A stretch of DNA of 36,595 nt. Origin: a virus. Shown here in pieces: positions 464 to 36,595 of this stretch. The notes below the pieces were generated by a model. That model worked only from the letters and a program-made list of their open reading frames with translations. It was not told the DNA's origin and searched no databases. The stretch covers positions 1 through 36,595 of the IMG/VR virus record IMGVR_UViG_3300021091_000201. The stretch is one strand, 5' to 3'. Numbering within the stretch: the first letter of the stretch is position 1; each line of letters starts with the position of its first letter. A program made the position numbers and the translations under genes.

Positions 464-1036
464 ATGAGCCAAAGCGTTACTTACACATTCTATGCTGAAG
501 TAGGTGGCGAGCCTGCTAGTAGCTTAGCTCCAACTTTCTCTGTATTTAGAGAAGTTGTTAGTGGTGACAATCTACCAGACTCAAGCTTGCCAACTATCTC
601 TTCTCTTGGAGACGGATTTTATAAGTATAGTTTTACTTGGCCGGATGTATCTATCCCTGGGAATCTCCCTGTTTCATATCTTGTAAAGATAGATTTAGGT
701 GTTTCAGTGCCTAGTGGAGAACGTTATATTATTAATCGTATTGAGAGGCATGATTATCTCCCTGCTGTTGCAACTAGCATTCAAGAAAGTGCAGAGCTTA
801 TCAAAGCTAAAGCTGATAGCTTAATTGATTCTGCAGAACTATTAAAAGCATTAGTAACAAGGCTTTTAGATATAGAGGAAGGTAACTGGGAGATTATTAA
901 CAATACGCTTATTATCAAAGACTCAGGAGGAGTTATGATAACTAAGTTCGACTTATTTGGAAGCAGCGGACAACCTACAAGCTCTAATCCATATAAGAGA
1001 GTACTAGCTTATCAAAAGCCAAGACCACCTCTCTAA
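464..1036 (+). CDS. Small virion structural protein with N-terminal beta-sandwich
   Basis: A 190-residue protein starting right after the previous stop (TAA-ATG), with a G-rich patch (TTGGGG) upstream. Residues 1-95 alternate beta strands and turns (motif GDGFYKYSFTW near residue 49), as in the beta-sandwich modules of phage baseplate and upper-fibre proteins. Residues 100-135 form an Ala/Leu/Glu helix likely to be a coiled coil. The last third is again strand-rich and ends in a basic, proline-rich tail. No enzyme motif is visible. The fold and the structural role are inferences from composition and from its place in the tail operon; no family is recognised. Confidence 0.7.
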   Translation: MSQSVTYTFYAEVGGEPASSLAPTFSVFREVVSGDNLPDSSLPTISSLGDGFYKYSFTWPDVSIPGNLPVSYLVKIDLGVSVPSGERYIINRIERHDYLPAVATSIQESAELIKAKADSLIDSAELLKALVTRLLDIEEGNWEIINNTLIIKDSGGVMITKFDLFGSSGQPTSSNPYKRVLAYQKPRPPL

Positions 1037-1050
1037 TAAAGGCTAGTTAA

Positions 1051-3453: not shown

Positions 3454-3462
3454 GAGAAGATC

Positions 3463-6144
3463 ATGGCTGATAAATTACATACATTAACTTCTAATTTAAT
3501 AAGATTTGCTGCTGGTGAAAAACCTTCAGCGGATAAATTCAACGCAGCCAATGAATACTTCGCAAGATCTCTAAGGGAGATTTCCAGGGCAATTGGAGAT
3601 ATAAGAGATCAGGGATATCCTCACTCTAGTAATGCTAATAAGTATACTCATCTTACTGGAGCTTGGAATCCTTATGAAGCTGGAAGAGAAGAAGGGCGCC
3701 CGTTAGATATAGTTAATATTGCTAGGTTAATTGGACCTGCAAGTAATTTGAATCCCAAGATGTTAGATTTTGATACTACTAAATTAGAGACAATCCCTGG
3801 ATCTTTAATGGAATACGAATTAAGTTTTCCATTAAAAGAAAATGGAACAATTAGTATTATAATAGCTGGTGTACCTTTAACAAAGGTAACCACTCCCTAT
3901 TTTACTGGAGCCAATCAATTCTTAGTTAGGGGTAACGTTGTATACTTCTCAAGCAGCCATAACGGAAACAGAGCTATAATATATGATACTTCAGCAAGTG
4001 ATATAGATGGTGGAGCTAATTATACTGGAGCTAGCTTTAACGTAATTCCTGATCCTAATCAGCCTACTAAATTATCAGTAGTAGCCTTACAAAATGAAGT
4101 TAATGCTTACTCAGTTAGCTTAGGGGCTTGTACTCATCAGCAATCGGGGATTAGAAATCAAGAAAGCTTAAGATTAAGCTCTTTAAACGCTGGTGAATAT
4201 AATAGTAATATTGCTCTTAAACTACCTACTTGGATGTGGTCTGGAAGCTCTCCTAGATTTGCAAATGGGGATGCTATTCCAGAAGGTTTCTTAGTATTAA
4301 AGAATTTAACTACAAATGAAGTATATCAAAACGCTAGCTACTTCTTTGTAAGTGCAAGTCAAATAATTATCAGGGGAGTGTCTCTTTGCGTAGATCATAA
4401 GTTCTGTATAATTACAGTAGGAACTGATATTACTACAAGCATCGATGATTTACGTAACAAGATGTTTTTGCACAAACACGATGGCTCTTTTGGAGAGCCT
4501 AGAGTAAGTGTAAAAGATCTAATAGACAAGTTTACTGAGTTTTCTAGTGTTTTATATGGAGAGTCTAGTATTCCTAATAACCACTTCCCAATGTATCTAC
4601 ATCGAAGTGCTGGTCTTCAGGATGATAATTTAAATAATGGTAAAAATGCAATGCTCGGCTCATTAGCAATGGGGAGTACTGGATTTAATTCCTTAAATCC
4701 AGTATCAAACCCTCCGTTTAAAAGCGCACCAGCTGACTCTTTAAGTACTGGGTATGCTAGCCAACCAATACTTTTTAGCAGTCCAGATTGCCTAATAAAA
4801 AGAGAAGATGATGCAACACTGCTTATCAAGAATAGCATCCATAAAAATATAGATATAGAAGCTAAGAATATAAATCTGACATCTACTGCTGAAATTATTT
4901 TAAATGCTCCAGGAGGATTGTCCTTAAATTCTTTAGGAGGTTTTGGTTTTATAAATTTATATTCAAGTTCAGTAGATGTAGGTTCAGAGAACCTTTTATA
5001 TTTGCACGGAAGCGATGTAAGAATAAATGCAAAGAATATAATTAATTCTATTGCTTATACAAATAATCCCAATCAGTGGGGAAAGTTTATCGTAGAAGGT
5101 GCAGGAAGCAGTAGCGAGATTATATGTTCGCCTTTAGAGGGGGTTTATCTTGGAGGAAAGCATTTAGAACTATTTGATAGGTACAATAAACCAGACGATG
5201 ATTTAACTAGAAAAACAACATATCTTGAGATGGATAATTTGAATGTTAGTTTTGATAAACTTTCTAACAATCAGGTTGGACAGCTATCACAACCAATAGA
5301 GAAAGAAATAAAAAGGGGAAAAATTACTAAAGATAATAGTAGTATCTTTACTAAAACTTTCTCAAGAAAAAGAATTGAGCTTGAAATAGACCAAGAATCA
5401 GTAGGTTACTTTGATAGCGCATTGTTAATAAATGGTGATTATGCTGATAGCGCTTTTCAAACTTTGCTTAGTAATGCAAACTATTTGAATTATTTTGAAA
5501 CACGAAAAAGTTTAGATCATTCTCATCCAAGCCACATTATAAGAGCAAAAAATTATAGATTAAAAGATACTGATTTTGAAGGAATCACAGAGTTAATAAC
5601 TGTCTTTAAAAATCAGTCAATAAGTAGTTCAAATGATTTTACTCGTTTTGATATTTTAATTAATGAAGAAGATGTAGATTTTAAAATAAAGCAAAGTGAA
5701 ATTTTAGGAGAAACAGATACTGATAAGGAAATATTAGGTATCATAGGAAATATAATAGTTAACTTTAAATATGAAATTATTGGATACGGAAATTTAAATA
5801 AAAGAAGACTTCTGATAAATAAAAAACAAAAAGAAGTCGGAACAATTACAAGTTTTTCATCATCAATATATAATGATTTAATAAATTATTTAATTGAAAT
5901 TCCAGGATCTAAATTTATTAATTTTAAATTAATTAATTATCAATCAGGAAGTACATATGAGAAAGATTTAATGATAACTACAAGTTCAATAGATCTTTTT
6001 GATTTACTATTTTCTGCAAATCAATTTGAGAATCTTGATGCAGAACAAACTCTTTTAAAAATGAATGATTTGGATTTTGAAATTGATATTATTGAAGATT
6101 TTAAAAATTTAAAGATTAATATTGTTGGCAGATATTATGCTTAA
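3463..6144 (+). CDS. Large tail or fibre protein with central beta-repeat region
   Basis: An 893-residue protein with a purine-rich ribosome binding site (AGAGAAG). The N-terminal 65 residues are helical (LREISRAIGDIRDQGYPHSS), like an attachment segment. Residues about 445-540 contain short runs such as NIDIEAKNINLTS, AEIILNAPGG and DVRINAKNI. This pattern of alternating I/N/A residues is typical of the beta-helix or beta-prism stems of phage spikes and fibres. The C-terminal third is low in complexity, rich in Ile, Asn, Lys and Asp, and markedly more AT-rich in its codons than the first half. It sits in a run of structural genes and overlaps the next gene by 8 bp. No enzyme motif is seen. 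Confidence 0.72.
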   Translation: MADKLHTLTSNLIRFAAGEKPSADKFNAANEYFARSLREISRAIGDIRDQGYPHSSNANKYTHLTGAWNPYEAGREEGRPLDIVNIARLIGPASNLNPKMLDFDTTKLETIPGSLMEYELSFPLKENGTISIIIAGVPLTKVTTPYFTGANQFLVRGNVVYFSSSHNGNRAIIYDTSASDIDGGANYTGASFNVIPDPNQPTKLSVVALQNEVNAYSVSLGACTHQQSGIRNQESLRLSSLNAGEYNSNIALKLPTWMWSGSSPRFANGDAIPEGFLVLKNLTTNEVYQNASYFFVSASQIIIRGVSLCVDHKFCIITVGTDITTSIDDLRNKMFLHKHDGSFGEPRVSVKDLIDKFTEFSSVLYGESSIPNNHFPMYLHRSAGLQDDNLNNGKNAMLGSLAMGSTGFNSLNPVSNPPFKSAPADSLSTGYASQPILFSSPDCLIKREDDATLLIKNSIHKNIDIEAKNINLTSTAEIILNAPGGLSLNSLGGFGFINLYSSSVDVGSENLLYLHGSDVRINAKNIINSIAYTNNPNQWGKFIVEGAGSSSEIICSPLEGVYLGGKHLELFDRYNKPDDDLTRKTTYLEMDNLNVSFDKLSNNQVGQLSQPIEKEIKRGKITKDNSSIFTKTFSRKRIELEIDQESVGYFDSALLINGDYADSAFQTLLSNANYLNYFETRKSLDHSHPSHIIRAKNYRLKDTDFEGITELITVFKNQSISSSNDFTRFDILINEEDVDFKIKQSEILGETDTDKEILGIIGNIIVNFKYEIIGYGNLNKRRLLINKKQKEVGTITSFSSSIYNDLINYLIEIPGSKFINFKLINYQSGSTYEKDLMITTSSIDLFDLLFSANQFENLDAEQTLLKMNDLDFEIDIIEDFKNLKINIVGRYYA

Positions 6145-8152
6145 CTTAGAATTAATTAACCAAAGCTCTCAAAAAGAGAGCGAAGTTGCGATTACAAATG
6201 TTGTTAATTCGCCTTTGGAACATCTAGAGTTTTCAAGATATATAAGCGATAGAAGTATTGCTATAAGCTATCTTGAATCTGAAGAAGTAAACTCTAGAGA
6301 TAATTTAGAAATAAATGATCTATCTTGGAGGGTTCCAAGAAACAATCCTAACTTTCTTAAAAGAAACTCTGAAATAGAAGTTCAGGGTAATTCTTTTTAT
6401 TCTCCGTACTCAAAGATAGAAATAACTAATAAGACTTACACAAATATAGAAGGCTTAGAAGAACCACTATTCTATAAGCATTTTAAGAAAGTAAAAGAAG
6501 CAAAGATTCACTATATAGAATCTGGTGATGACTTTGAAGTAACAAGCGGCTTTAAGGTAGTTAACGACTGGATCTACACTAATTATAAAAATTACTATAA
6601 TAATGAAACAGGTAATTATAGAGTTTATTTTGTAACCGGAGTAGACGAGTTAGGCAATCAGATTAATGATTTGCTAAACGTAGTATCAGCAATTAAAGAA
6701 GCTTCATGGGAAGATATTGATCCTGAGTCAGGAGATATTGTTGGAGATGTTTATACTAAGGAAGAGCAGGATCAAGGATACTTCTTTAAGGTTAACTTTG
6801 ATATTGTAGAAGCTTGCGGCAAAGTAAATGATAAGCTTTATATAAGAGGCTCTGAAGAAAACTTGATAAAGCTTTTAAAACCAGAGGCTTTCTCTGTAGA
6901 GAACCCCTGGATATTAAGAATCCAAAATGGTTGGGTTCTAGATAAAAAGAAGTATTGGCTTCCAGAATATGAGCAACAAGCTTTTGACCCTGAGTTTGGA
7001 TTAATAAAGCTTGAGAATAAAACATGTAATTTAGTTAAAAGAAATATAATTAAATTACCTGTTAATAAAATTAAAGTTAACCCAAAGAATGAAGTGCATT
7101 TAAGTGTTTTTATCTATGATGAATCAGATAGGTTAGTTAAATGCTCGACTACTGAGTTAAGAAAAGTTGGTAGCAAGTTCTCAAACACTCAGATCAAGTT
7201 TGATAACGATATAGATTCTTGGGACGAGTTCAATGGGTTTGTAGAGTTAAAGTTTGATGTAGATAGTAGTCAGATAATTAAGGCTAGCTTTCATTATAAT
7301 ACTGACTGCTACCTGTATAGCCAGATTTCTACAAACCCTCTAGAAAACGAAAATATGATCTATCAGAAGTACTTCTTCTACCTTAAGAGCAACGCTCCAA
7401 GAGGAAGTAGATCTGTACATCATCTACTCTTAGATGAAGATGGCCGGATTACTGAGTGCTCAGACCCAGACTTGAAGCTCAAACTAAACAATAGCTTTAA
7501 TCAAGATACTATCATTGGAAGCAATATTAGAGATTTTAAAGGTAGGTTTAGTTATGGTTATCAAAATGATTATCAGTATATGGAACTAGGAGAGGTTTCT
7601 TTAGAAGAAGACTTTTATATTGACGAGATTAATCAAATAGAAGTAAAAGAAGAAACCTATACTAATGAGAACCTTTATGAAGATATGCTAAAGCATCAGT
7701 GGAAGATTCTACAGTCTAAGCATGGTTATGGAGAGCTTGGTCAAGTTGTTCAGAAGAACAATATCATTTACTTAGAAGCTCCAATAGATCTTCTACAAGA
7801 GATGGGTGGAGATTATACAAGAGAAGAAGTAGAGTCTCTTCTAAGAAGAAAACTACCGTATGGAATTGATATAGTTGTAGAGTTTATTTATCCAAAATCC
7901 AAGCTTGTTCTGAATAATCAAACTGCTGGAGAAATTGGAATAGAGTTATCTTGGGAGGGTCCAGGAACTTATACGGTGGAGAGAAAGTTAATTAATGCTT
8001 TGCAGTATGATGGTATTGTAGAAATTGAATCTACAGAAGAAGAAGTTTTAACTTTTGTAGATGATCAAGTAGAATCAGGTAAAGCTTATTATTACAGATG
8101 TAAGTTTGAAAATTATCCTTATGGAAATATCTTTGGAGTAATGGCAAGATGA
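6137..8152 (+). CDS. Tail protein ending in a fibronectin type III-like domain
   Basis: I place the start at the ATG at 6137; the upstream TTG codons at 6122 and 6125 lack a ribosome binding site. The ATG overlaps the previous stop by 8 bp, which suggests translational coupling. The product has 671 residues. The last 85 residues (about 588-671) have the seven-strand layout of a fibronectin type III domain: a Leu-Ser-Trp strand, a central TYTVERKL strand and a final GKAYYYRCKF strand. The rest is acidic and Tyr/Asn-rich with no recognised motif. The domain call is made by eye. Such C-terminal modules are common on baseplate and tail-tip proteins and suggest display on the virion surface. Confidence 0.75.
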   Translation: MLNLELINQSSQKESEVAITNVVNSPLEHLEFSRYISDRSIAISYLESEEVNSRDNLEINDLSWRVPRNNPNFLKRNSEIEVQGNSFYSPYSKIEITNKTYTNIEGLEEPLFYKHFKKVKEAKIHYIESGDDFEVTSGFKVVNDWIYTNYKNYYNNETGNYRVYFVTGVDELGNQINDLLNVVSAIKEASWEDIDPESGDIVGDVYTKEEQDQGYFFKVNFDIVEACGKVNDKLYIRGSEENLIKLLKPEAFSVENPWILRIQNGWVLDKKKYWLPEYEQQAFDPEFGLIKLENKTCNLVKRNIIKLPVNKIKVNPKNEVHLSVFIYDESDRLVKCSTTELRKVGSKFSNTQIKFDNDIDSWDEFNGFVELKFDVDSSQIIKASFHYNTDCYLYSQISTNPLENENMIYQKYFFYLKSNAPRGSRSVHHLLLDEDGRITECSDPDLKLKLNNSFNQDTIIGSNIRDFKGRFSYGYQNDYQYMELGEVSLEEDFYIDEINQIEVKEETYTNENLYEDMLKHQWKILQSKHGYGELGQVVQKNNIIYLEAPIDLLQEMGGDYTREEVESLLRRKLPYGIDIVVEFIYPKSKLVLNNQTAGEIGIELSWEGPGTYTVERKLINALQYDGIVEIESTEEEVLTFVDDQVESGKAYYYRCKFENYPYGNIFGVMAR

Positions 8153-20615: not shown

Positions 20616-21044
20616 TTAATCTCCAATTGAGAATATTTTTTCTTTTAGATATTCAGCATTAATTTTTTTAGCATCTTTATAGGAGATTTCCAAATATAAA
20701 TAACCAGCATCAATAAGCGCAGTTTTCTTGCGATTATCTCTATACTGGATATTATGAAATTCTTTTTTATTTTCAAAATAAGAATTGTTATTTGAAAATT
20801 TAACTAATTCATAATGTTGTTTACCGTGTAATTCTATGACGCAATTAAGTTCGCGCACATACCAGTCAACAGCATCATGGTTGTTAGGATAGATATCCAC
20901 TAGTGAAGATACCAATACTTCTTGAAAGCATTGAAACTTCTTAAAGAATTCATCCGATATAAAGACTTCTCTTACATCATTATGAAACTTAGAAGCGTTC
21001 TCATAATGATAGAATTGATTCTTTAGCTTACTCGAGTTTACCAA
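20616..21044 (-). CDS. Vsr/DUF559-like endonuclease
   Basis: A 142-residue protein that contains no internal methionine. The only plausible start is TTG at 21044, which has a full AGGAGG Shine-Dalgarno six bases upstream. The core has Glu42 (FQEVLV), Asp60-Trp61-Tyr62 in AVDWYVRELNCVIELHGKQHY, and Glu71-x-His73 with a trailing QHY, followed by RDNRKKTALIDAGYLYLEISY. This order (D, then E-x-H and QH, then an R-D-x-x-K helix) is that of Vsr and DUF559-type single-strand-nicking nucleases, which include mismatch and self-splicing-associated endonucleases. It overlaps the end of the preceding gene by 17 bp. The fold is likely; the substrate is unknown. Confidence 0.7.
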   Translation of the reverse strand: MVNSSKLKNQFYHYENASKFHNDVREVFISDEFFKKFQCFQEVLVSSLVDIYPNNHDAVDWYVRELNCVIELHGKQHYELVKFSNNNSYFENKKEFHNIQYRDNRKKTALIDAGYLYLEISYKDAKKINAEYLKEKIFSIGD

Positions 21045-25607: not shown

Positions 25608-26654
25608 TTATTTTAGTAAAATATGGGGGTGGCTTTCTTGTAAGCCAGAAGTAGTTATTCGAACAAATTTAACATTGTCAGGATTTAATTCCTGGATACA
25701 GTTGATACCTAAATACGAAATCGCAGAAGCAATTGCTGATTTAGTTTGATTATTAAAGTCGGCGAAAGAGCCAGACTTATAAATCTTTTTATTAGATTGC
25801 ACCCCTTCGGGCGTACCATTTACTTTACCTCTGCGTTGAACCTGAAACTCTTTAGAAGCCTGACCTCTATAGTATTTATAAGGCTTTCCAAAGAAAGATT
25901 CTTGCCAACCATGAGACTCATCTATAGATGATAACATTCTACCTAGCATTACAGCATTAGCTCCAGCAGCAAGATATTTGATAATATCTCCTGAAGATCT
26001 AATGCCTCCATCTGCTATGAGGATATTATCTTTATATCTGAAGCTAGATGAAATCTCATAGAGTGCAGAGAGGTTAGGATAGCCGCAACCAGTAACTATT
26101 CTTGTGGAACAAGCGCTACCCGGGCCAATACCAACTCTAATATGACTGCAATATTCAGAAACGAACAAAGCAGCTTCTGGAGTTGCTACCGTACCAGACA
26201 TTAGCTTACGGCACCAACGAGCTTCTTTATAAAGCTTATAGAACTTGAGAGCTTGCTCAGTAGCTCCATGGGCAATATCGACACAGATATTTACTTTACA
26301 AGCAGAACCCTTATCAAAGAAGTAGAGGTTTAAGAAATCGTAATCTTCTTTATTCAACCCAACAGAATACCAGAAGTTTTCGTTGAGATGGAAAGTATCA
26401 AGAGCTCTCTTCTTCTCTGCATGAGGTAGAAACCTACAAAGCACGGGGCTTTGTTTTTCAGGAAGCATAGCGGCACAAAGATTAAAACCAGTAACTACAT
26501 CCATTGGGCTAGAATAGATAAAGCTAGTATTTATCTTGGCTTGAGTTCGTGACTCTAAGCGTCCAATAGTAGGAACTAGGAGCACATCATCTACTGTTAG
26601 TCTTGGAGCAGATAAATCATTAATAGAGAATATCTTATCATTAAGCGCGCGCAT
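25608..26654 (-). CDS. IMP dehydrogenase/GMP reductase-family enzyme without CBS domains
   Basis: A 348-residue TIM-barrel enzyme of the IMPDH/GMPR superfamily. The loop GIGPGSACSTRIVTG (catalytic Cys182) is the family signature. Other family blocks are SPMDVVTG (49-56), VDIAHG, SGTVATPEAA, ADGGIRSSGD (214-223), MLGRML, and YRGQAS followed by a PEGVQ phrase. The length and the short flap fit GMP reductase better than CBS-containing IMPDH, and TGCGYPNLSA is close to the GMPR phrase TGVGYPQLSA, but TRIV is the IMPDH form. I do not decide between IMP to XMP oxidation and GMP to IMP reduction. Either alters the guanine/adenine nucleotide balance for phage DNA synthesis. The ATG overlaps the previous gene by 14 bp. 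Confidence 0.82.
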   Translation of the reverse strand: MRALNDKIFSINDLSAPRLTVDDVLLVPTIGRLESRTQAKINTSFIYSSPMDVVTGFNLCAAMLPEKQSPVLCRFLPHAEKKRALDTFHLNENFWYSVGLNKEDYDFLNLYFFDKGSACKVNICVDIAHGATEQALKFYKLYKEARWCRKLMSGTVATPEAALFVSEYCSHIRVGIGPGSACSTRIVTGCGYPNLSALYEISSSFRYKDNILIADGGIRSSGDIIKYLAAGANAVMLGRMLSSIDESHGWQESFFGKPYKYYRGQASKEFQVQRRGKVNGTPEGVQSNKKIYKSGSFADFNNQTKSAIASAISYLGINCIQELNPDNVKFVRITTSGLQESHPHILLK

Positions 26655-27896: not shown

Positions 27897-28211
27897 TCAC
27901 TTGTCCTGTAAATTAATAGTAGCTTCTTCTACTGCTTGAGCTGCAACATCCTTCATTGAAGAACTTACTTCTTCAAATTGCTTTTTGATTTCAGAAAGAC
28001 GCTCTTCCTGAAACTTGTGAAACTCTTCATCTAGCTGAATACCAAGCCCTTTGTCTTCTAGCTTGTCGTAAAGGTATTCAACAAGCATTGAGAGCTGGAT
28101 AATCGAATTGAAGTTATAATCAATTCGAGCTTCTAGGGCTTGAGCAAGATTCATTGTGAATCCGAAGGGGGTAGGCTGCTCAGCAACTTCTTTTGGCATA
28201 TCGGTAGTCAT
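27897..28211 (-). CDS. Small coiled-coil protein
   Basis: A 104-residue acidic protein whose ATG overlaps the previous TGA (ATGA), with AAAGG seven bases upstream. After a proline-rich start (residues 1-18) it is helical, with a likely coiled coil in residues 55-98 (LDEEFHKFQEERLSEIKKQF). No membrane segment or catalytic motif. It lies between a phosphoesterase and an Fe-S nuclease and may be a partner of either. Function unknown. Confidence 0.6.
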   Translation of the reverse strand: MTTDMPKEVAEQPTPFGFTMNLAQALEARIDYNFNSIIQLSMLVEYLYDKLEDKGLGIQLDEEFHKFQEERLSEIKKQFEEVSSSMKDVAAQAVEEATINLQDK

Positions 28212-29275
28212 AATAGACCTTTCTTAGTAGGCAGATGTGAGCCTATATAAATGGGAGTGGAATCATTAAAGTTGGTATTGCCGGAAGCATCTTGATAGAT
28301 GACAGCATAACCATTCATAGCGTTTTTAAATTTTAAGTCTGCTTGGAATTGATAAGGAAGTCTATGAGCCATAGCTCCTTGTTCAATTAGAAGCTTTCCT
28401 GAAACAACACCTTTATATATTTTGTGAGTATGGCCGACAACTATAGAATCGAAGTCGTCATCATTCATTCTTTCGGAGAAATGATCAAGTAGTTTTACTA
28501 CAGTGGCACCAGGATATTTGCTAGCAAAACCTGATGGATGACAAAAGATAGTTTGACCAATACGTACATACCAGGAATCTGAACGTTGATAAATTACATT
28601 ATCAAATTGGATCTTTTCTTCAAGGACAGCTTCATCATTTAGTTTCTCTCCATTAGCGATTCTAAATAAGAGATCACCTCCATAAACAGAGGAAGCATCT
28701 TTACTAAAGCCAGCCATCTTAAGAGCTCTTGATGTACGGTAATCATGATTACCAGAAACTAAAACTACTTTCTCAAAGTTATCTGACAAGTAATGTACTA
28801 AATCAAAAGCCATCTTATATTCTTTAATAGCAGCAATATTTTTGCTTTTAGAATAGGTGCTAAAGATATAAGCATCTAAGATATCTCCGTTAAGCACAAT
28901 TACATCTGCATCTGCATGTTGCTTCAGTGCCTTCTCCATATCTTCCCAGAGAAAGAATGGCAGATGTAAATCACTAAAAGAAACGATCTTCTTGTGCTTG
29001 CTATCGGTTAAACCTAAATCAAGCTTTACAGATCTTGAGCGATGTTCCTTAGCAGTTTGAATAATGAAATCCCAGTCATCAGAGTATTCTTTAATCTCTG
29101 TCGGAGCTACTTTGTCTCTTAGGATCTTTCTGCGAACGGCGGACTCGGTTCTTTCTGAAGTGAACCCAGAAAGTCCTTCAGAATATTTTGAGTTTATTAA
29201 AGATGTTATTTCAGTATAGTTGAGCTTGCCCAAAGAGCGAGCTAATAGTTTTTCCTCTTCAGGTGTCCACTTCAT
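28208..29275 (-). CDS. Metallophosphoesterase with Myb/SANT-like N-terminal domain
   Basis: A 355-residue enzyme with the full calcineurin-like phosphoesterase set: Asp102-x-His104 (SFSDLHLP), Gly-Asp 130-131 (VLNGDILD), Gly-Asn-His-Asp 175-178 (VSGNHDYR), His246 (CHPSG) and Gly-His-Thr-His 281-284. These ligate two metals. The relatives include Mre11/SbcD nucleases, Lambda-type phosphatases and cyclic-nucleotide phosphodiesterases. Residues 1-55 (start MKWTPEEEKLL, later RTESAVRRKILR) look like a Myb/SANT helix-turn-helix, a DNA-binding unit. This makes a DNA-directed phosphoesterase more likely than a free phosphatase. Its ATG overlaps the DnaE-C gene by 17 bp with no Shine-Dalgarno, so it is probably translated by coupling. 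Confidence 0.87.
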   Translation of the reverse strand: MKWTPEEEKLLARSLGKLNYTEITSLINSKYSEGLSGFTSERTESAVRRKILRDKVAPTEIKEYSDDWDFIIQTAKEHRSRSVKLDLGLTDSKHKKIVSFSDLHLPFFLWEDMEKALKQHADADVIVLNGDILDAYIFSTYSKSKNIAAIKEYKMAFDLVHYLSDNFEKVVLVSGNHDYRTSRALKMAGFSKDASSVYGGDLLFRIANGEKLNDEAVLEEKIQFDNVIYQRSDSWYVRIGQTIFCHPSGFASKYPGATVVKLLDHFSERMNDDDFDSIVVGHTHKIYKGVVSGKLLIEQGAMAHRLPYQFQADLKFKNAMNGYAVIYQDASGNTNFNDSTPIYIGSHLPTKKGLL

Positions 29276-30521
29276 TTTGTATTTTGAATCTTTCTATTGA
29301 TTGAAGGATTAGTTTTATATCTGGATCAGTAGACTCGACTTTGACGCGGCACTTTAAAATATCAGTTTCAACAATTTCCATCTTAGAAACCTTGTCCCAC
29401 AACTGAGGAAACACAACAATCTCAGCACTATTTGTTGAGTCGTCTATCTCAAGAAAACCCATTATTTTACCTGATCTAGTTTTTACTGTTTTTGTAGACA
29501 AAACAACACCAGCTACATTTGCATAAATACCCTCTTCTAAGGTATCCAAATCTTCTTTATCAATAGAAATAAGATCTAGCGGATGTCCTCCAATATAGCA
29601 ACCAATAAATTGCGCTTGCTCCATTACCTCTTTAAGATTGAGTGGAACAAGCTTATTGCGCTCTAGTTGGGGAAACTCCGGAAAAGGAAATCTTTGTAAC
29701 GCTGGCAGGCGTTTCAAAGCTTGTTCTTCTAGAGGTAGCAACTCATCCTGGTAGTTGCTTAGAGTAAGCGCATCCTCTGGCTTGTCTTTGCCTTTAGATA
29801 TTTTGTTTTCTAGTTTCTTGATTTCATTTCTAAGAAAATCTCTACGTTCAATTAGGGGCGCGACCCTAAGATTGTGATTGTCTCTTTCAACGAAATCTAT
29901 TTCTCTTTGTTTATAATCTTCAATATCTTTAATATATTTGTAAATCTCCGAAGTATTATTAAGCAAATGAGATCTTGTATATCCCATTTTATCAAAAGCT
30001 CCAGCTTTAACTAGAGCCTCAAATACTTTAGTATTTACCTTTTGAAGATTGACTCTATTAAGAAAGTCTTTGATATCTTTAAAAGCAGTATCTCCTCTAG
30101 CAGAGATAATTGCTCTTGCAGCTGTCTGACCTACATCTCGGATAGCATTAAGCCCAAAGTAAACTTCATTACCGATAACAGTAAATTCAAAACTACTTTG
30201 ATTAACAGATGGAGGGTTAATATCTACTCCAAAATGCTTTGCTTCCTTAATATACTCAGGAGCTTTAATAGCCCAATGTTTAGGCTGCAAAGTCTTAGAT
30301 CTCGTAGACATTAGAGAAGTAAAGAACTCTACAGGATAGTGAGCTTTTAGATAAGCGGTAACGTAAGTTAGCACAGAATAACTTACGCTATGCGCTTTGT
30401 TAAAACAGTTAGACGCTACGAGACCATTAGACAATAAGAAGTTGTTAGCTCCACAAAAGGAGCGCACTCCAATATCGTAAACTAATTGCTCTCCAGCGTC
30501 TTGCTTAGAGACAATTTTCAT
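29259..30521 (-). CDS. dnaE-C: DNA polymerase III alpha, C-terminal half, with N-terminal split-intein fragment
   Basis: The 420-residue precursor starts with a 38-residue intein C-fragment; splicing would leave the extein from Cys39. The extein starts CFNKAHSVSYS and continues TYVTAYLKAHYPVEFF, matching the end of the bacterial DnaE fingers. A helix-hairpin-helix region follows (119-180; FGLNAIRDVG, later KVFEALVKAGAFD), then a charged coiled-coil insert (190-270) that is longer than I expect for DnaE, GGHPLD (311-316), and an OB-fold (334-410). PHP, palm and most of the fingers are missing and must come from a separate DnaE-N carrying the intein N-fragment. AAGGA lies five bases before the ATG, eight bases after the preceding stop. 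No such partner is encoded in the window. Confidence 0.92.
   Translation of the reverse strand: MKIVSKQDAGEQLVYDIGVRSFCGANNFLLSNGLVASNCFNKAHSVSYSVLTYVTAYLKAHYPVEFFTSLMSTRSKTLQPKHWAIKAPEYIKEAKHFGVDINPPSVNQSSFEFTVIGNEVYFGLNAIRDVGQTAARAIISARGDTAFKDIKDFLNRVNLQKVNTKVFEALVKAGAFDKMGYTRSHLLNNTSEIYKYIKDIEDYKQREIDFVERDNHNLRVAPLIERRDFLRNEIKKLENKISKGKDKPEDALTLSNYQDELLPLEEQALKRLPALQRFPFPEFPQLERNKLVPLNLKEVMEQAQFIGCYIGGHPLDLISIDKEDLDTLEEGIYANVAGVVLSTKTVKTRSGKIMGFLEIDDSTNSAEIVVFPQLWDKVSKMEIVETDILKCRVKVESTDPDIKLILQSIERFKIQNEVDT
30408..30521 (-). other. Split-intein C-fragment (IntC) at the cyanobacterial DnaE site
   Basis: Residues 1-38 end in SNGLVASN, followed by Cys39-Phe-Asn. VYDIGV (14-19) is identical to the IntC of Nostoc punctiforme DnaE, which also ends in ASN before CFN and, like this one, starts with Met. 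Two differences are clear: the segment between VYDIGV and NF is three residues longer, and the usual Asp-His before Asn-Phe is Ala-Asn. Asn38 can cyclise and Cys39 can accept the ester. No N-fragment or endonuclease domain is present. Confidence 0.9.
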
Positions 30522-30529
30522 TTAAATCC

Positions 30530-30877
30530 TTAATGGAAAATAGATAAACCAACCCAACGATCAGTAGAAGCGTCAAGTAATATTAAGCAAATGCTACTAT
30601 GATTATTCAAAGTGTAGTCTGCTGATTCTTCCACTGTTCCATTTGCAGTGTATGGCTCTATAGTTATTGAGGAAGCAGTTAATCTTTTTATTGATAGAAT
30701 ACTTCCACTTGGAGTCACGGTAGGATCTGGCAAGGTAATTGTAGCTTGGTTAGCCCCTTCATAATAAATTAAATCATGAGGAGATTGTTGAGTATGCGTA
30801 TATGTGGTCGACGTAACTTCGACTACATTAATAAAAGAAAAACTAGTGAAATCTATTTGCTTGGCTTTTATTTTCAT
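30530..30877 (-). CDS. Small fibre-associated beta-sandwich protein
   Basis: A 115-residue protein with AAGGA about 8 bases before the ATG. The central part, PHDLIYYEGANQATITLPDP, and a later phrase SGSILSIKRLTASSITI match the small beta module found on many phage tail fibres and in neck whiskers ('I.v.g..attITLP......G....Ikr...gnvTi'). It ends in a SSICLILLDASTDRWVGL strand, again typical of the module. Its stop is only eight bases before the start of DnaE-C, and a terminator lies just upstream at 30894-30916. It therefore depends on read-through or on a promoter I cannot see. Confidence 0.75.
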   Translation of the reverse strand: MKIKAKQIDFTSFSFINVVEVTSTTYTHTQQSPHDLIYYEGANQATITLPDPTVTPSGSILSIKRLTASSITIEPYTANGTVEESADYTLNNHSSICLILLDASTDRWVGLSIFH

Positions 30878-30893
30878 TTTAAAATCCTTAAAT

Positions 30894-30916
30894 AAAAAAA
30901 GGAGGTTTCCCTCCTT
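30894..30916 (-). terminator. Rho-independent terminator after the tail fibre gene
   Basis: On the minus strand AAGGAGG, a GAAA tetraloop and CCTCCTT form a perfect seven-base-pair stem (30899-30905 pairs with 30910-30916), followed by a run of seven T (30894-30900, shared with the stem end) and ATTT. It lies 32 bases after the stop of the gene ending at 30949. It separates the fibre gene from the downstream small fibre gene and DnaE-C, unless it is leaky. Confidence 0.85.
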
Positions 30917-30948
30917 AAAGTTAAAATAGAATACAGTTTAAATTATTA

Positions 30949-32388
30949 TTATGCAAAAGCAGTATAAGAAATCTCTAGCACATCGCCGATTTCAAGATTA
31001 TAATCGGCAGAAGCCCACCAGAGTACATCTGTAGCTTCAATTGCAGCTAAAGTTGTGCGAGCTACGCCTGCAGAAGACTTGAAAAAAGCATCAATTCCAG
31101 AATTAGTAGAGACTCCAAGAGTAACCTTTACGCCATTTACAAAAAGTATTGGAGCTTGGTCAGCAGCAGGAGTTTTTGTAATTGAGATTCCAGTAGAAGC
31201 AGTAGCAGTTACTGCAGCCGCAAGAGTAGAAGTTTGAAGCCTTGGAACTGGAGCTTCAATTGCCTTCTTGTTACTAGCATCGTCAGAGAGTTTTAAACTT
31301 TCACCTTTAAGCCTGATTGTAAGACAATCGTCAGCACTCTGATCGGTTCCAAAAGGGGTGATCTGGTCATTTAAAGAAAAGGTTAGACCAGGACCGCCCT
31401 CCGCACTTGCAGCCCACTTAAGTGGGCTATGGGGAAATGCACTGCCAAGATAAGACCACGAACTTAGATTTGATCTAAAGAAATTATCTACTCTTATTTT
31501 CTTCTCGATACCATTGTCTGAATAAAGAAGATAATCTTGCTCAGGATTTAAACGGTTTGCTTCTTGTTCTTGAAAATAGAGAGTCTCAGATAGCGAATCA
31601 ATATTAAGACTGATTGTGTTACCCTCTTTTAAAAGACCTGCTCCAGCTTCTACTACACCAGCTGCTGAAAACTGAGTGAAAGTAAGCGCTGTCGAATCCA
31701 AGGTAATAGGACCGTTAGTAGAAAGTACATAGCCGGTATCAGCGTTGACTGAACCTTGTTCAATAAAACAGAATGCGCCCGGAGTAATGTCAGAAGTTGA
31801 ATTGAAATCAGAAGCTCTTATTAAGACCCAAGGAGTAGTTGAACCATTACCCGCCTGAGTTACTTCATAAATACCATTTTCATAACCATTGAGATTTCTA
31901 TCTTTAACAAGTACACGATTACCAATGGCAAGCGAAACTCCGTCAACTTGAAGATTGGAAATTGCAGGAGAAGACTCAGTAAGTTCTGAATCTGCATATT
32001 CAAAACTATGAAGATCCATAGAACCAGTAGTAGCAACTCTGACAGATTGTTTTACATCTAATCCTTGAGCTACGGAATCTACATATGTTTTTACAGCCGC
32101 TGCTTCTGCAATCTTTCCAGTAAGTGTGCCTGTCGTTAGATCAGTAGAGAAGGCATCTGCAGCAATTTTTTCTAAAGTAACAGCGGAATTAGCTAGCTTA
32201 GAAGTGCTAATAGCGTCATCAGCTATAGACAAAACGCCTGCTGCAGTAATAGTAGCGTGACCGCTAAGAGCAACTGCAGAGATTTCTCCTGTTGCGTTAC
32301 CAAGAAGTAGCTTAGCTGCGTCTACAGTAGGAAGCTTAGCAAAAGAAATGCTATTGTCAGCAATTTGTTTACCTTTAATAAGAGCCAT
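30949..32388 (-). CDS. Tail fibre protein
   Basis: A 479-residue protein preceded by AAAGGA. Residues 1-75 hold the well-known tail-fibre repeats (KGKQIADNSISFAKL, ATITAAGVLSIADDAISTSK, LANSAVTLEKIA). Residues about 108-245 form a module common on phage fibres: GLDVKQSVRVATT, then DGVSLAIGNRVLVKDRN, ENGIYEV, and NADTGYVLS with TALTFTQFS. The C-terminal part is alanine- and threonine-rich (TSTLAAAVTATAS) and ends in strands that may form the trimer tip. It lies just upstream of the intrinsic terminator. Fibre identity is certain by motif; the host receptor is unknown. Confidence 0.9.
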   Translation of the reverse strand: MALIKGKQIADNSISFAKLPTVDAAKLLLGNATGEISAVALSGHATITAAGVLSIADDAISTSKLANSAVTLEKIAADAFSTDLTTGTLTGKIAEAAAVKTYVDSVAQGLDVKQSVRVATTGSMDLHSFEYADSELTESSPAISNLQVDGVSLAIGNRVLVKDRNLNGYENGIYEVTQAGNGSTTPWVLIRASDFNSTSDITPGAFCFIEQGSVNADTGYVLSTNGPITLDSTALTFTQFSAAGVVEAGAGLLKEGNTISLNIDSLSETLYFQEQEANRLNPEQDYLLYSDNGIEKKIRVDNFFRSNLSSWSYLGSAFPHSPLKWAASAEGGPGLTFSLNDQITPFGTDQSADDCLTIRLKGESLKLSDDASNKKAIEAPVPRLQTSTLAAAVTATASTGISITKTPAADQAPILFVNGVKVTLGVSTNSGIDAFFKSSAGVARTTLAAIEATDVLWWASADYNLEIGDVLEISYTAFA

Positions 32389-32401
32389 TTTTTATCCTTT
32401 T

Positions 32402-32764
32402 TTAGTTTGTAGTTTCTGGGAGCCAAAATTCAACGAGATCAGTATCGTCTATCTGGTAAGAATCAGGGTTAGAGCTGTTGTAAACTAAAGTATTAGTAGC
32501 ATTAGGATGGATTGAAAGTAAAGACTTATCAATTATCATTCCATTTACTGTCATTTTTAATTTAAGAGAACCATCCGAATAAACGGATATTGTTATAGGT
32601 AATTGAAAAGTAGTTACATTTGTTTTTATTGGATCAGGAAAATTCCATTTATAATATTTCCAATAGTCTCCAGTAACCACTTTGCCTTGTCTAGTTACAT
32701 AACCTTGAGCAAATATATTATCAAGATCTAATCCACCTACTTTAACTTTTGTAACTCTTGGCAT
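32402..32764 (-). CDS. Small virion protein, probably tail-tip or fibre-associated
   Basis: A 120-residue protein whose ATG comes one base after the preceding stop, with AGGA nearby. It is strand-rich (VTTFQLPITISVYSDGS, LKLKMTVNGMIID) and contains no catalytic residues. Its ending, DDTDLVEFWLP, and its short length suit a small subunit between fibre proteins. No family recognised; the role is inferred from the neighbouring fibre genes. Confidence 0.65.
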   Translation of the reverse strand: MPRVTKVKVGGLDLDNIFAQGYVTRQGKVVTGDYWKYYKWNFPDPIKTNVTTFQLPITISVYSDGSLKLKMTVNGMIIDKSLLSIHPNATNTLVYNSSNPDSYQIDDTDLVEFWLPETTN

Positions 32765-32765
32765 T

Positions 32766-33059
32766 TTAAAGATCCTGATAGAAAGCTAAGAGTTTAGCTC
32801 CTGGTTGAGGAGCATTAAAATTTAAAGTGAGTACTGCTCCTGAAAGAGTATAATCTTCGCTTGGAGACAAAACTAAACCATCTAAAGTCAAAATAAAAAC
32901 GTTAGTAGGATCTGGTTCGGGAATTAAAGAAAAAGTAGTTACTGAGCCATCAAGTTGACTAGACAAGTCATGAGTAACAATTATATTTCCTACTCCTGTA
33001 TCGCCAGTGATATTAATAGTGGAGTTAATTATTGTTATTGGATAAGAAACGTTAGACAT
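32766..33059 (-). CDS. Small fibre-attachment protein
   Basis: The start is the ATG at 33059, with AAAGG seven bases upstream; a TTG seven codons earlier is in frame but less likely. The 97-residue product has the phrase LTLDGLVLSPSEDYTLSG, then AVLTLNFNAPQPGAKLLAFYQ. This is the small C-terminal module of phage fibre and spike proteins ('vflNGv.q.pg.DYtlsG..itft..p..Gd.i...y'). It probably attaches to or trimerises fibre proteins. Confidence in the module is good; the precise subunit is unknown. Confidence 0.8.
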   Translation of the reverse strand: MSNVSYPITIINSTINITGDTGVGNIIVTHDLSSQLDGSVTTFSLIPEPDPTNVFILTLDGLVLSPSEDYTLSGAVLTLNFNAPQPGAKLLAFYQDL

Positions 33060-33069
33060 GATTAACCTT

Positions 33070-35088
33070 TCAGATATCAAATCTAGCGTTAATATAAACT
33101 ACGCCAGGTGCGTTTAAGATGAGGCCTAAGTCAAGGTAACCGCCCGTGAGCGTGGTAACTGTTTTAGTTGTTGTAGTATCGGAGAATGTACAATTAGAAG
33201 AGTTAATATCTACGATTACACTAGTAGCTATTCTTACACCAGTAGAGTCTCTTGCTTCTACTTGAAGCGTAGAATTTACAGGAGAACCTGAATACGTAAT
33301 TGTTTGATCAGTTACTAAGTTTATAGTATTTGAAGTAGCAGAAGAAATAGATGTTTCATAGATTTTAACATCTATGAATTTTCTCTCTGGTGTCTCAGTA
33401 GTAGTAAGCAATTGAAACTCATCGCTACCCATATCGACTACATAAACGGAATCATTAGTTTTCTTAGAAAAGAAATAAGGATAAACGTTTGGAGTATTAG
33501 ATAGTTTTTGCCAATAAGTTGTAGGATTAAACTGCCACCTTGATAATGAAGTACTCTCTGCTACAAAAAGATTATTGCGTTCAGGATCAGGAAAGAATGA
33601 CATGATCGCATTAAGAGCAGCTGTTTGTACGTGAGTTAAGGTTTCCCAATTGTTGGAAATAGCATAAGTAACAATATTCTTTGTTGCAGCTGTAGGGGAA
33701 AAACCTAAGTATCTATTTGATAAAAATTCATTAAATATTGAAAGATAATAATTATTAGAAGAATCTTTTATAATTTCTAATCTTACTGGGCAAATATGTT
33801 TTAAACAAAGATTAACGCTTGTATTTGAATACCCCGTTGCAACTGGAAGGGCGTCATCAAAGCCATCTTCATATGCTGTTTTTATACTAGCTTGATTACT
33901 CAAAGGTAATAATTTTATTTGAAATACATTATTTTGTTTATTCCAAAATAAACCAAGAATTTTTAAATTATTTGAAGTATCAAAACCTGGAAAATAAGAT
34001 ACATATAAATTTGAAGCAGGAGCTGTTCTAATGAATGAAGTTGGAGAAAAACTTCCAGTTATTCTATTTACTGAACTATTGACGTTGCCTCCAAGCCCCC
34101 AGGAAGTAGTGCTATTTAAATCGTAAAGTATATTTAAAGTGTTTGTAGACAAAACATGCTCTACAATTATATAACGATGATAATGAGGTTCAGTAGTAGA
34201 ATACCATGATTCGGCGCCAGTGTTAGTATCTTTTTCGCAAGCTCTTATATAAACTGGATTTCCATTGTTTGATTTGCCGCAGTAATAAAGCGGAGCACTA
34301 TTTAGGTGATAAGTAAGATAAAAAGTAGGAGTTAGAATATTTATATATTCATAAGCACCTAAAGTTAAAGAACCATCAACAGCTCTAGTTGTATAGGAAA
34401 CTCTGTACAAGGAAGAAGTGTGATAAGGATAGTAGCTTACAGTTGGTCCTGCATTTCCAGAATCCATTTGTAAGTATATGTATTTATTAGAAGTATCAAC
34501 CCAATAAATCGAAGGAAGTCCAGTAGATATTAAAGAGCTTATAGAGTGAGTTGTGTTGGGATAAGTCCTTATAACGGAAGCTTTTATATCGTCTAAAGAA
34601 GAAGCTTCTAAAAGAGCTATTTTTATATCGAAAGTATGAGTAGTAGTTACTGAGCTTTCTAAATAAATTATATGAACCATATGATCTACATTTGAAGCAT
34701 CTTTGAAAGATGTAATAGTTCCGCTATTTGTATTTCTAGATTCCTCATCTAGATTCATTATGTAAGCTTTATTTAAACCACAAACATGATTATTCTGCTT
34801 ACTCATTCTTAAAGCTCTGGCACTATTTTCTGCATCCCAATTAGATCTAATAGTGTAGTTACAGGGAAGAGTAGAGGGAAACATACTTCCATAAGGAAGA
34901 TTATTTGTAGGGTTGTTTTGTTTAAAGATCTCTAAACCAGATAGAGTAGAAAGTTTAGTATTTTTATTTAATTTAATGTTTTTATAATAAATATTCTCGG
35001 AGTCAAATGCGGCTAAGAACTTAGAATCAGTAAGCTCATAGTTCAAAGCACCTAAACGTGGGGGCTTAAAATTAATTAGTTGTCTCAT
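33070..35088 (-). CDS. Large virion protein with Ig-like C-terminal domain
   Basis: I start at the ATG at 35088, which has AGGAGG exactly six bases upstream; a TTG two codons earlier is less likely. The product has 672 residues, rich in Ser, Thr, Asn and Tyr, with repeated beta-strand units in the middle that suggest a propeller-like body. The last ~95 residues (580-672) form an Ig-like sandwich with TLQVEARDSTGVRIATSVIV and later GVVYINARF. This domain has a recognisable homologue at the end of the partial gene at 36007-36594. A surface or receptor-binding virion protein is likely. Confidence 0.75.
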   Translation of the reverse strand: MRQLINFKPPRLGALNYELTDSKFLAAFDSENIYYKNIKLNKNTKLSTLSGLEIFKQNNPTNNLPYGSMFPSTLPCNYTIRSNWDAENSARALRMSKQNNHVCGLNKAYIMNLDEESRNTNSGTITSFKDASNVDHMVHIIYLESSVTTTHTFDIKIALLEASSLDDIKASVIRTYPNTTHSISSLISTGLPSIYWVDTSNKYIYLQMDSGNAGPTVSYYPYHTSSLYRVSYTTRAVDGSLTLGAYEYINILTPTFYLTYHLNSAPLYYCGKSNNGNPVYIRACEKDTNTGAESWYSTTEPHYHRYIIVEHVLSTNTLNILYDLNSTTSWGLGGNVNSSVNRITGSFSPTSFIRTAPASNLYVSYFPGFDTSNNLKILGLFWNKQNNVFQIKLLPLSNQASIKTAYEDGFDDALPVATGYSNTSVNLCLKHICPVRLEIIKDSSNNYYLSIFNEFLSNRYLGFSPTAATKNIVTYAISNNWETLTHVQTAALNAIMSFFPDPERNNLFVAESTSLSRWQFNPTTYWQKLSNTPNVYPYFFSKKTNDSVYVVDMGSDEFQLLTTTETPERKFIDVKIYETSISSATSNTINLVTDQTITYSGSPVNSTLQVEARDSTGVRIATSVIVDINSSNCTFSDTTTTKTVTTLTGGYLDLGLILNAPGVVYINARFDI

Positions 35089-35284
35089 TTGCAACCTCCT
35101 CCACTATAACTTGTTCTGGTTCTACTTCTGGAGGGACCCAAGGAATAGTAGTCTGATACCAAGCTTCAGCTTCTTCTAAAGAAGTAAAAGCTTCATTTAG
35201 CTTTGTAGGATTTCCTCTAGTAGTCATTGTAAGCACACCATCTTCATAAATATGAAGAGAGCCATCAATAAGCTTAAGTTCCAT
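35072..35284 (-). CDS. Small acidic protein, 70 residues
   Basis: The ATG lies two bases after the previous stop (TAATAATG) and has no strong ribosome binding site, so coupling is likely. The protein starts with strands (MELKLIDGSLHIYEDGVL), has a short helix with SLEEAEAWYQTT, and ends in a Pro/Glu-rich tail. It overlaps the next gene by 17 bp and contains the Shine-Dalgarno of that gene. Small acidic proteins placed between fibre genes are often fibre chaperones or cement proteins, but I recognise no family here. Confidence 0.6.
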   Translation of the reverse strand: MELKLIDGSLHIYEDGVLTMTTRGNPTKLNEAFTSLEEAEAWYQTTIPWVPPEVEPEQVIVEEVANETTN

Positions 35285-35286
35285 TA

Positions 35287-35991
35287 TTAGCCCCAGAATT
35301 CTTTTAAGGTTATAATAGTTAGGTCTTCAGGATTAGGAGGCACATACTCTTCTACATCTTGAGGTTCTATGTACTGGAAGATTTGATTGAACTCTAGATC
35401 TAAAGCTAAAAGCATATCGTCATTTACTTTAGGAACATAAAGGAAAGTAGGAGTAACAATTACTCCTGAATAAGAATACCCGAGAGGGTAAGTAGAATAA
35501 GGTTCTTGGACGTATGTAGTTTTTGTAGAGCTCTGAGATCCTACAAGAGTAGTAGATGCTGAAGAGTTTACAGTATATGAGTCGAGAGTTTCTTGAACGT
35601 TAAATAGTAGAAAATTACCTTCATAACTAACAAAAGAAGCGGGAGCTGTAGTTTCCGGAAAGAAACTAATAGCAACGCTTGATGAGCTTTCTTGTAATGA
35701 ATCAAAGTTTTCTAGAACTTGTAAAGAAGCAGAGCTATTGAAATAACTAATAGCATGACTAGTGTCTAGATCTACAGCCTCTATATGATTTTGAGTTAAT
35801 AAGCTTTGATCATTATTAATTAAAAGAGGAAATTTTAAACTATTTAATGAAAAAGAATCTAATTGATTCTCAATCAAAATAGAACCCACGCTCGTAAATA
35901 GCTGACGATTAAGCTTTTTAAACTTACTCGTAGGCTTAGTCTGTAAGGATATTGTGTTTATTATCCTGTCTAGAAATTGATATTGAGGCAT
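35287..35991 (-). CDS. Virion structural protein, Ser/Thr-rich
   Basis: A 234-residue protein with AGGAGATAGGA upstream of the ATG. It is rich in Ser, Thr, Val and Phe, with strand patterns (FLLFNVQETLDSYTVNS, TFLYVPKVNDDMLLALDL) and no catalytic motif. There is no signal peptide. It lies between two large fibre-like genes with homologous C-terminal domains and is likely to be part of the same tail-tip assembly. No family recognised. Confidence 0.65.
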   Translation of the reverse strand: MPQYQFLDRIINTISLQTKPTSKFKKLNRQLFTSVGSILIENQLDSFSLNSLKFPLLINNDQSLLTQNHIEAVDLDTSHAISYFNSSASLQVLENFDSLQESSSSVAISFFPETTAPASFVSYEGNFLLFNVQETLDSYTVNSSASTTLVGSQSSTKTTYVQEPYSTYPLGYSYSGVIVTPTFLYVPKVNDDMLLALDLEFNQIFQYIEPQDVEEYVPPNPEDLTIITLKEFWG

Positions 35992-36006
35992 GGGTCCTAT
36001 CTCCTG

Positions 36007-36594
36007 TTAGATTACGAAGCTAGCTGTTACGTTAACATAACCAGGACCAGTAATCACTACAGCAACACTTGTATCTAGAGTTGGACTGGTTGTCACCGTT
36101 ATTTGAGTTCCGCCATCCTCGAAAACCATATTAGCGCCCTCAATTGAAAGTAATACTGAAGTCTGTATTCTTTGACCTGCACTATTATAAGCATTTACAA
36201 GCAAGGTATTGTTTATATTAACACCATTATATTCCTGATCTATATTCTGAAATGAAACAGACGTAGTAAACGCAGTAGTACGAGGAATAATATGCAGTTC
36301 TAGTTTAGGATCGTAGAACGGACGTGTCCAGACTGAATAAGGTTGATCCCATTGTAGGTATGATCTACCTGCTATCTTAGAACCCCAAAGTCTTCCGAAA
36401 CTATCAAGAGCGATTGAAGTGAAAACCCCAACCTCTCTTGAAGTATTTACCCATCCATTGGGAGTTAAAGAATAAAAGCTAATACCGTCATTATCTAGTA
36501 CATTTAAGGTTGTATCCGAATCAGTTAAGAAATAATCTAAAGCTTCAATTGGAAAACTTTGTACATATTCTAGAGCTGGCGCAGTTTGTAGATT
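36007..36594 (-). CDS. Large virion protein, 5' end outside the window
   Basis: The minus-strand frame is open from the window edge to the stop at 36007; a TTG at 36204 that could be taken as a start is internal. The visible 195 residues begin inside a probable beta-propeller (SIALDSFGRLWGSKIAG has the 'I..D..G.LWG' form). They end in an Ig-like domain that closely resembles the end of the protein at 33070-35088: shared features are DQ, N-x-T-L-x-V, S-x-G-x-R-I-x-T-S-V, N-x-x-F-x-D, P-G-x-V and A-x-F-x-I. It is most likely a paralogous fibre or tail-tip protein. Confidence 0.75.
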   Translation of the reverse strand, partial: NLQTAPALEYVQSFPIEALDYFLTDSDTTLNVLDNDGISFYSLTPNGWVNTSREVGVFTSIALDSFGRLWGSKIAGRSYLQWDQPYSVWTRPFYDPKLELHIIPRTTAFTTSVSFQNIDQEYNGVNINNTLLVNAYNSAGQRIQTSVLLSIEGANMVFEDGGTQITVTTSPTLDTSVAVVITGPGYVNVTASFVI

Positions 36595-36595
36595 T

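What the first reader, a model, noticed from the sequence alone, without database searches (positions are those of the whole stretch)
29259..30521. Phage-encoded naturally split DnaE intein: polymerase III alpha made in two pieces
The DnaE C-terminal half starts directly with an intein C-fragment of 38 residues (VYDIGV, then NGLVASN) joined to Cys-Phe-Asn. This is the same site and +1 to +3 residues as the split DnaE inteins of cyanobacteria. No N-fragment or DnaE-N is in the window; the gene upstream is a fibre gene. The active phage replicase must be made by protein trans-splicing. I know of split inteins in phage metagenomes (helicase, IMPDH and ribonucleotide reductase loci), but a phage carrying a DnaE-C of this cyanobacterial type beside tail genes looks new to me.
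Basis: partly seen in the sequence, partly recalled or inferred. Interest (0 to 1): 0.93.

Follow-up and report, generated by a model that had tools for sequence, protein, structure and literature searches.

The report
Phage DNA polymerase rejoined by split intein
This phage encodes its DNA-copying enzyme in separate pieces (three in its relatives), two of which carry matching halves of a self-splicing protein element previously known from cyanobacteria, so two pieces are very probably stitched together after translation; it matters because it puts the best-known split intein into viruses and makes its origin testable.

Summary
Window 29259-30521 (-) encodes a 38-aa intein C-fragment (..VYDIGV..NGLVASN) fused to DnaE at Cys-Phe-Asn, with its own ribosome-binding-like site and an in-frame stop directly before the ATG. 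The window is a 36.6-kb fragment without a DnaE N-half. In a colinear 158-kb relative the N-half lies about 6 kb past the window edge and ends in a matching 98-aa intein N-fragment (Cys1, TxxH). All long clade contigs searched carry both halves, 2-13 kb apart; in those read, tail or fibre-like genes lie between.

The polymerase is in three pieces, not two: the relatives also break inside the palm domain with no intein signature, so the PHP piece probably binds non-covalently. The intein sits at the cyanobacterial DnaE site and is homologous (36-49% identity), but forms its own clade in a DnaE no closer to cyanobacteria than to Mycobacterium or Thermus.

Two other phage lineages carry the same intein, nearer to cyanobacterial ones. 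One is fused to a LAGLIDADG endonuclease; the other phage has three inteins in DnaE. Splicing was not tested. I found no earlier description, but the key "fractured genes" paper was not readable here.

The parts
29259..30521 (-). dnaE-C gene: intein C-fragment fused to the C-terminal part of DNA polymerase III alpha (HhH and OB domains)
30408..30521 (-). Intein C-fragment, 38 aa, block F VYDIGV and block G NGLVASN (penultimate Ser, terminal Asn)
   Evidence: same head in further contigs of the clade
30405..30407 (-). +1 Cys codon of the C-extein (CFNKAH), predicted nucleophile of trans-splicing
   Evidence: invariant in alignment A2
29262..30407 (-). C-extein of DnaE: HHH_6 at residues 98-186, OB fold at residues 335-410
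30522..30531 (-). AAGGA ribosome-binding-like sequence and in-frame TAA directly before the dnaE-C start, so the intein half is a true N-terminus
   Evidence: sequence
30530..36595 (-). Structural/fibre-type genes between the DnaE halves; the window ends inside them. The matching stretch of the relative runs on to the IntN gene about 6 kb further
28208..29275 (-). Metallophosphoesterase gene overlapping the dnaE-C stop; a metallophosphoesterase-like gene with a similar N-terminus follows dnaE-C in the distant phage L048/G014 too (by eye)

Best explanation
The window ORF is the C-half of a phage replicative-type DNA polymerase III alpha split by an intein at the same site as the cyanobacterial DnaE intein. 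The phage makes (a) a PHP/palm-N protein, (b) a palm-C/fingers protein ending in IntN, and (c) this IntC-HhH-OB protein. IntN and IntC bind each other and fold into one intein; Cys1 and Cys+1 exchange the thioester, Asn38 cyclises, and ...GFADY-CFNKAHSVSY... is ligated. Protein (a) is inferred to join non-covalently. Shown here: the sequence of the C-half in the window and of all three genes in relatives, conservation of the catalytic residues, coding-type evolution of the parts tested, and the tree placements. Inferred: that the window's own phage carries (a) and (b) past its contig end, that splicing happens, and that the product is the replicase.
For: Window C-half. Colinear relative G001 with PHP gene 37083-38405, IntN gene 38657-40252 and IntC gene 51776-53038, all on one strand. 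IntN matches solved DnaE inteins (4lx3 5e-13, 2keq 5.3e-12). Both halves in the long clade contigs and the PHP piece in all eleven clade contigs searched for it. Invariant Cys1, T and H of block B, block F Asp, terminal Asn and CFNK. Separate IntC ORFs in other contigs. Pfam DNA_pol3_alpha positions 3-102 lie in (a) and 100-260 in (b), so the set is complete. Codon test.
Against: The window's own N-half is not seen. No splicing assay. The IntN fragments are divergent between contigs (nonsynonymous changes dominate), so some could be weak or inactive. Several contigs come as near-identical pairs. Nothing shows that this polymerase replaces the host's. The AlphaFold model of the IntN protein was too poor to use (mean pLDDT 49.6).
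Confidence: 0.9

Rival explanations
1. Assembly artefact: the contig joins a truncated dnaE to fibre genes, and the real gene is contiguous.
For: The window is a linear fragment that ends inside the fibre genes, so its own N-half is unseen.
Against: The separate IntC ORF recurs in many IMG/VR contigs, with the IntN gene 2-13 kb upstream in those long enough; the reading frame has its own start and a preceding in-frame stop.
Confidence: 0.02
2. The split intein is a dead relic: the halves no longer splice, and the DnaE pieces work as a non-covalent complex, as the PHP piece seems to do.
For: The palm break suggests that this enzyme tolerates non-covalent division. IntN diverges strongly.
Against: Catalytic residues stay invariant across a clade whose inteins are otherwise only about 33-63% identical; IntC shows excess third-position change. 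A relic would be expected to lose Cys1, TxxH or Asn in some members.
Confidence: 0.06
3. The piece is an acquired cyanobacterial dnaE-C gene, that is, a recent host-gene capture rather than a phage-type polymerase.
For: Same insertion site and same ASN-CFN junction as cyanobacteria.
Against: The phage exteins form one fully supported clade (100/100) on a long branch outside cyanobacteria. The pol part scores 203 bits at best with cyanobacteria against 198-200 for Thermus and Mycobacterium (the two searches used slightly different query stretches). The intein is also a separate clade (92/90; 94/98).
Confidence: 0.02

Closest known systems
Cyanobacterial split DnaE inteins (Synechocystis Ssp, Nostoc Npu; Wu 1998 and Caspi 2003, cited in PMC6390638)
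   Same: Same enzyme, same site before Cys-Phe-Asn, similar fragment lengths (about 100 and 36-38 aa), penultimate Ser in most, separate genes; IntN and IntC homologous by sequence
   Different: Phage-encoded; separate intein clade; non-cyanobacterial DnaE; a 2-3-residue insert in IntC in the window's own branch; fibre-type genes between the halves; a second, intein-less break in the relatives
'Fractured genes' of phage metagenomes (Dassa 2009, NAR 37:2560; paper not held, known from citations and own knowledge)
   Same: Phage DNA-metabolism genes broken by split inteins
   Different: From memory, those have a free-standing endonuclease gene between the halves; here the spacers read hold structural genes. 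I could not check whether that paper lists DnaE
Split minimal Pol III alpha of group 2.2 jumbo phages (PMC7824862)
   Same: Pol III alpha divided between the NTP-binding and the Mg-binding parts of the catalytic domain, in separate genes
   Different: That version lacks the other Pol III domains; here PHP, fingers, HhH and OB are present and a split intein joins two of the pieces
Cysteine-less split PolB inteins of T4-like phages (Aes123, CP21; PMC12707363)
   Same: Split inteins dividing a phage replicative DNA polymerase
   Different: B-family polymerase and no Cys nucleophiles; here C-family, Cys1/Cys+1 and the cyanobacterial DnaE allele

Membership tests
Split DnaE intein of the cyanobacterial allele | Insertion in DnaE directly before Cys-Phe-Asn, after F-A-x-Y | tested here: met
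   C side in the window; FADY|C on the N side in relatives
Split DnaE intein of the cyanobacterial allele | IntC with block F (Y/F-D-I-G) and terminal (A/V)-S-N | tested here: met
Split DnaE intein of the cyanobacterial allele | IntN with Cys1 and T-x-x-H, on a separate gene | tested here: met
   In relatives only; not seen for the window's own phage
Split DnaE intein of the cyanobacterial allele | Sequence homology of both fragments to known members | tested here: met
Split DnaE intein of the cyanobacterial allele | Falls within the cyanobacterial intein clade | tested here: not met
   Window-type phages form their own group (92/90; 94/98). Hence filed as a variant, not as a cyanobacterial member
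Split DnaE intein of the cyanobacterial allele | Trans-splicing activity | not testable with these tools
   needs expression of both fragments
Fractured genes (Dassa 2009) | Free-standing endonuclease gene between the two intein halves | tested here: not met
   ORFs between the halves in G001, L042, L043 and L044 read as structural or unknown, no endonuclease recognised by eye; not every spacer was profile-searched
Split minimal Pol III alpha of jumbo phages | Division of the catalytic domain into two proteins | tested here: met
   (relatives)
Split minimal Pol III alpha of jumbo phages | Lacks the other Pol III domains | tested here: not met
   PHP, fingers, HhH and OB are all found

The most novel reading that the evidence does not exclude
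Phages are a reservoir in which the DnaE split intein arose and from which it moves. An endonuclease-bearing phage allele (L048/L049) stands for the mobile ancestor, gene insertion between the halves in phages fixed the split, and the cyanobacterial split DnaE intein was acquired from, or exchanged with, phages more than once. The window clade then shows a replicase of three polypeptides assembled by one trans-splicing and one non-covalent joint.
Probability: 0.25. Interest if true: 0.87.

Novelty: new variant of a known kind. Interest (0 to 1): 0.76.

Why it matters
Split DnaE inteins are the workhorse of protein trans-splicing technology, and among cellular genomes every locus kept from the scan here was cyanobacterial (one MAG is labelled Chloroflexaceae). 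How a single essential gene came to be split is an old question. Here a phage clade carries the same allele in an unrelated DnaE, with distant phages holding forms with an endonuclease or with genes inserted between the halves. This gives sequences with which the order of events can be tested, about a dozen new natural IntN/IntC pairs for splicing assays, and a case of a viral polymerase whose assembly would depend on trans-splicing.

Tried and rejected
RNA intron between the PHP piece and the palm-C piece: no Rfam match near the gap, and the 22-residue tail and N-terminal extension evolve as protein. Intein at that break: no Cys/Ser start, no Asn end and no Hint-like sequence seen. Structure prediction of the IntN protein: mean pLDDT 49.6, not used. 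Close cultured relative by DNA: none in INPHARED; protein matches to phage DnaE are under 60% identity. Host: not determined. Literature: several full-text searches found no phage DnaE split intein; Dassa 2009 and Caspi 2003 are not held. First extein tree had long-branch warnings; repeated with some of those rows removed, main result unchanged. One alignment call failed on orientation.

Full report
1. Observation. The ORF at 29259-30521 (-) is real: 420 codons, ATG start with AAGGA upstream and an in-frame TAA just before it. Its first 38 residues, MKIVSKQDAGEQLVYDIGVRSFCGANNFLLSNGLVASN, are an intein C-fragment; CFNKAHSVSYS... continues into the HhH (residues 98-186) and OB (335-410) parts of DnaE. 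The record is a 36.6-kb linear virus contig, so the rest of the genome is not held. No DnaE N-domain is in it.

2. The missing half. Two IMG/VR contigs are close: L002 (98% identical protein, 8 kb) and L003/G001 (87%, 158 kb). The window is colinear with G001 82.2-46.4 kb, reversed. In G001 the same strand carries, in order, a PHP/palm gene (37083-38405), a palm/fingers gene (38657-40252) ending GFADY|CLAGNTQVKIKQ...CTPDHKFLTIDNK...EIYTIE* (98-aa IntN), fibre-type and other genes, and the IntC-DnaE-C gene at 51776-53038. The matching place in the window's phage is 6-9 kb beyond its right edge. IntN matches solved DnaE inteins at 5e-13 to 2e-9.

3. A clade, not a single oddity. Searches with both halves brought in further contigs. 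Inspected IntC genes begin a few residues after a stop codon, so they are free-standing. Where the contig is long enough, the IntN gene is present on the same strand upstream; approximate spacings are 2.2 kb (G012), 2.8 kb (G011), 4.0 kb (G010), 5.2 kb (G009), 11.5 kb (G001) and 13.5 kb (G013). Invariant residues include Cys1, the T and H of TxxH, the block F Asp, the terminal Asn and CFNK. IntC, the tail of the PHP piece and the N-extension of the palm piece change mostly at third codon positions; IntN is more divergent but still has position 3 above position 2. A scan for intein domains found only this intein in the eight contigs tested.

4. A second break. In all eleven clade contigs searched, the PHP piece is its own ORF; in the seven aligned it ends 22 residues after RFLNEGR with a conserved tail, (G/A)ATPLIFxxxMxxxAxxxxxPF. 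The next gene starts with a conserved extension of some 80-90 residues before the catalytic PPDIDID. Pfam DNA_pol3_alpha positions 3-102 are in the first and 100-260 in the second: the cut lies inside the palm, between the GPGRGS and DID motifs. No intron family match and no intein signature is found there. A similar division is described for a minimal Pol III of jumbo phages (PMC7824862). So the mature enzyme would be two chains: the PHP piece plus a trans-spliced chain. This part is inference.

5. Relation to cyanobacteria. The genome scan for IntC kept 80 loci of 268, all from cyanobacterial records except one MAG labelled Chloroflexaceae; all sit near the start of an open frame. Cyanobacterial N-halves were fetched for comparison. 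Phage and cyanobacterial inteins are 36-49% identical for the members compared. In the intein tree the window-type phages are one group (92/90, 94/98); support inside is low because only 139 columns exist. In the extein tree the phage DnaE is a 100/100 group apart from cyanobacteria, and its pol part scores about the same with cyanobacteria (at most 203 bits), Mycobacterium (200) and Thermus (198). So the intein, not the gene, is what is shared. Bacteria other than cyanobacteria were not in the tree.

6. Two other phage lineages. L048/L049 (identical over the stretch compared, 204- and 143-kb contigs): IntN of cyanobacterial type (50-61% identity) continues in frame into a LAGLIDADG endonuclease (Pfam 8.4e-8), and the IntC gene starts in another frame overlapping its end. 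A frameshift cannot be excluded. The same dnaE also has a group-I-intron-like match with an HNH gene (below Rfam's gathering score). L237/G031 (198 kb): the N-half carries a contiguous 411-aa intein with LAGLIDADG-like motifs (by eye), then the split intein with 3.4 kb of other genes between the halves, then a third 257-aa intein four residues into the C-extein; a LAGLIDADG-like ORF lies between its PHP and palm pieces. In the intein tree both fall with cyanobacteria (94/98), while their DnaE do not. This is best read as transfer of the intein between phages and cyanobacteria; the direction is open.

7. Novelty and limits. Full-text searches found no report of a phage DnaE split intein, but the library lacks Dassa 2009, which described split inteins in eight kinds of phage DNA-metabolism genes (own knowledge). 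It is a known kind of element in a new setting with new architecture: new variant of a known kind. Splicing, the host and the identity of the replicase were not tested.

Noticed in passing
L237 (IMGVR_UViG_3300035137_000026), about 3-8103: A phage DnaE with three inteins: a contiguous 411-aa one, the split one, and a third 257-aa one only four residues into the C-extein of the split intein.
   Followed up: partly
L048:1389-3029 and 3001-4239: A DnaE intein of cyanobacterial type still fused to a LAGLIDADG endonuclease, with IntC in an overlapping frame; could be the mobile form or a frameshift.
   Followed up: partly
L109:2385-2707 (G006): Group I intron (RF00028, 66.8 bits) inside the palm/fingers gene at the NRPGP motif of one clade member.
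   Followed up: partly
L023:1199-1467: About 270 nt interrupt the palm/fingers gene at RRAMG|KKK; no Rfam match, possibly a divergent intron or an assembly fault.
   Followed up: no
L245:2600-2902 (G014): A GroES-like reading frame (by eye) lies between the PHP piece and the polymerase piece of this phage's dnaE.
   Followed up: no
L006:8337-8402: The PHP piece ends in a conserved PF; some members (QFTLPF, QYTMPF) resemble a sliding-clamp-binding hexapeptide. Speculative.
   Followed up: no
window 20616-21044 (-): Small protein with a weak DUF559/Vsr-like nuclease match (E 0.063), next to a ClpP-like gene; possibly a stand-alone endonuclease.
   Followed up: no
window 25608-26654 (-): IMP dehydrogenase / GMP reductase-like gene; G001 also shows purA-, purB- and thyX-like genes by eye, suggesting purine metabolism genes in these phages.
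   Followed up: no
L014-L015 (G001 140000-158462): G+C rises to 0.51-0.59 against about 0.35 elsewhere; the end of this contig may be a chimeric join. It is far from the dnaE region used here.
   Followed up: no
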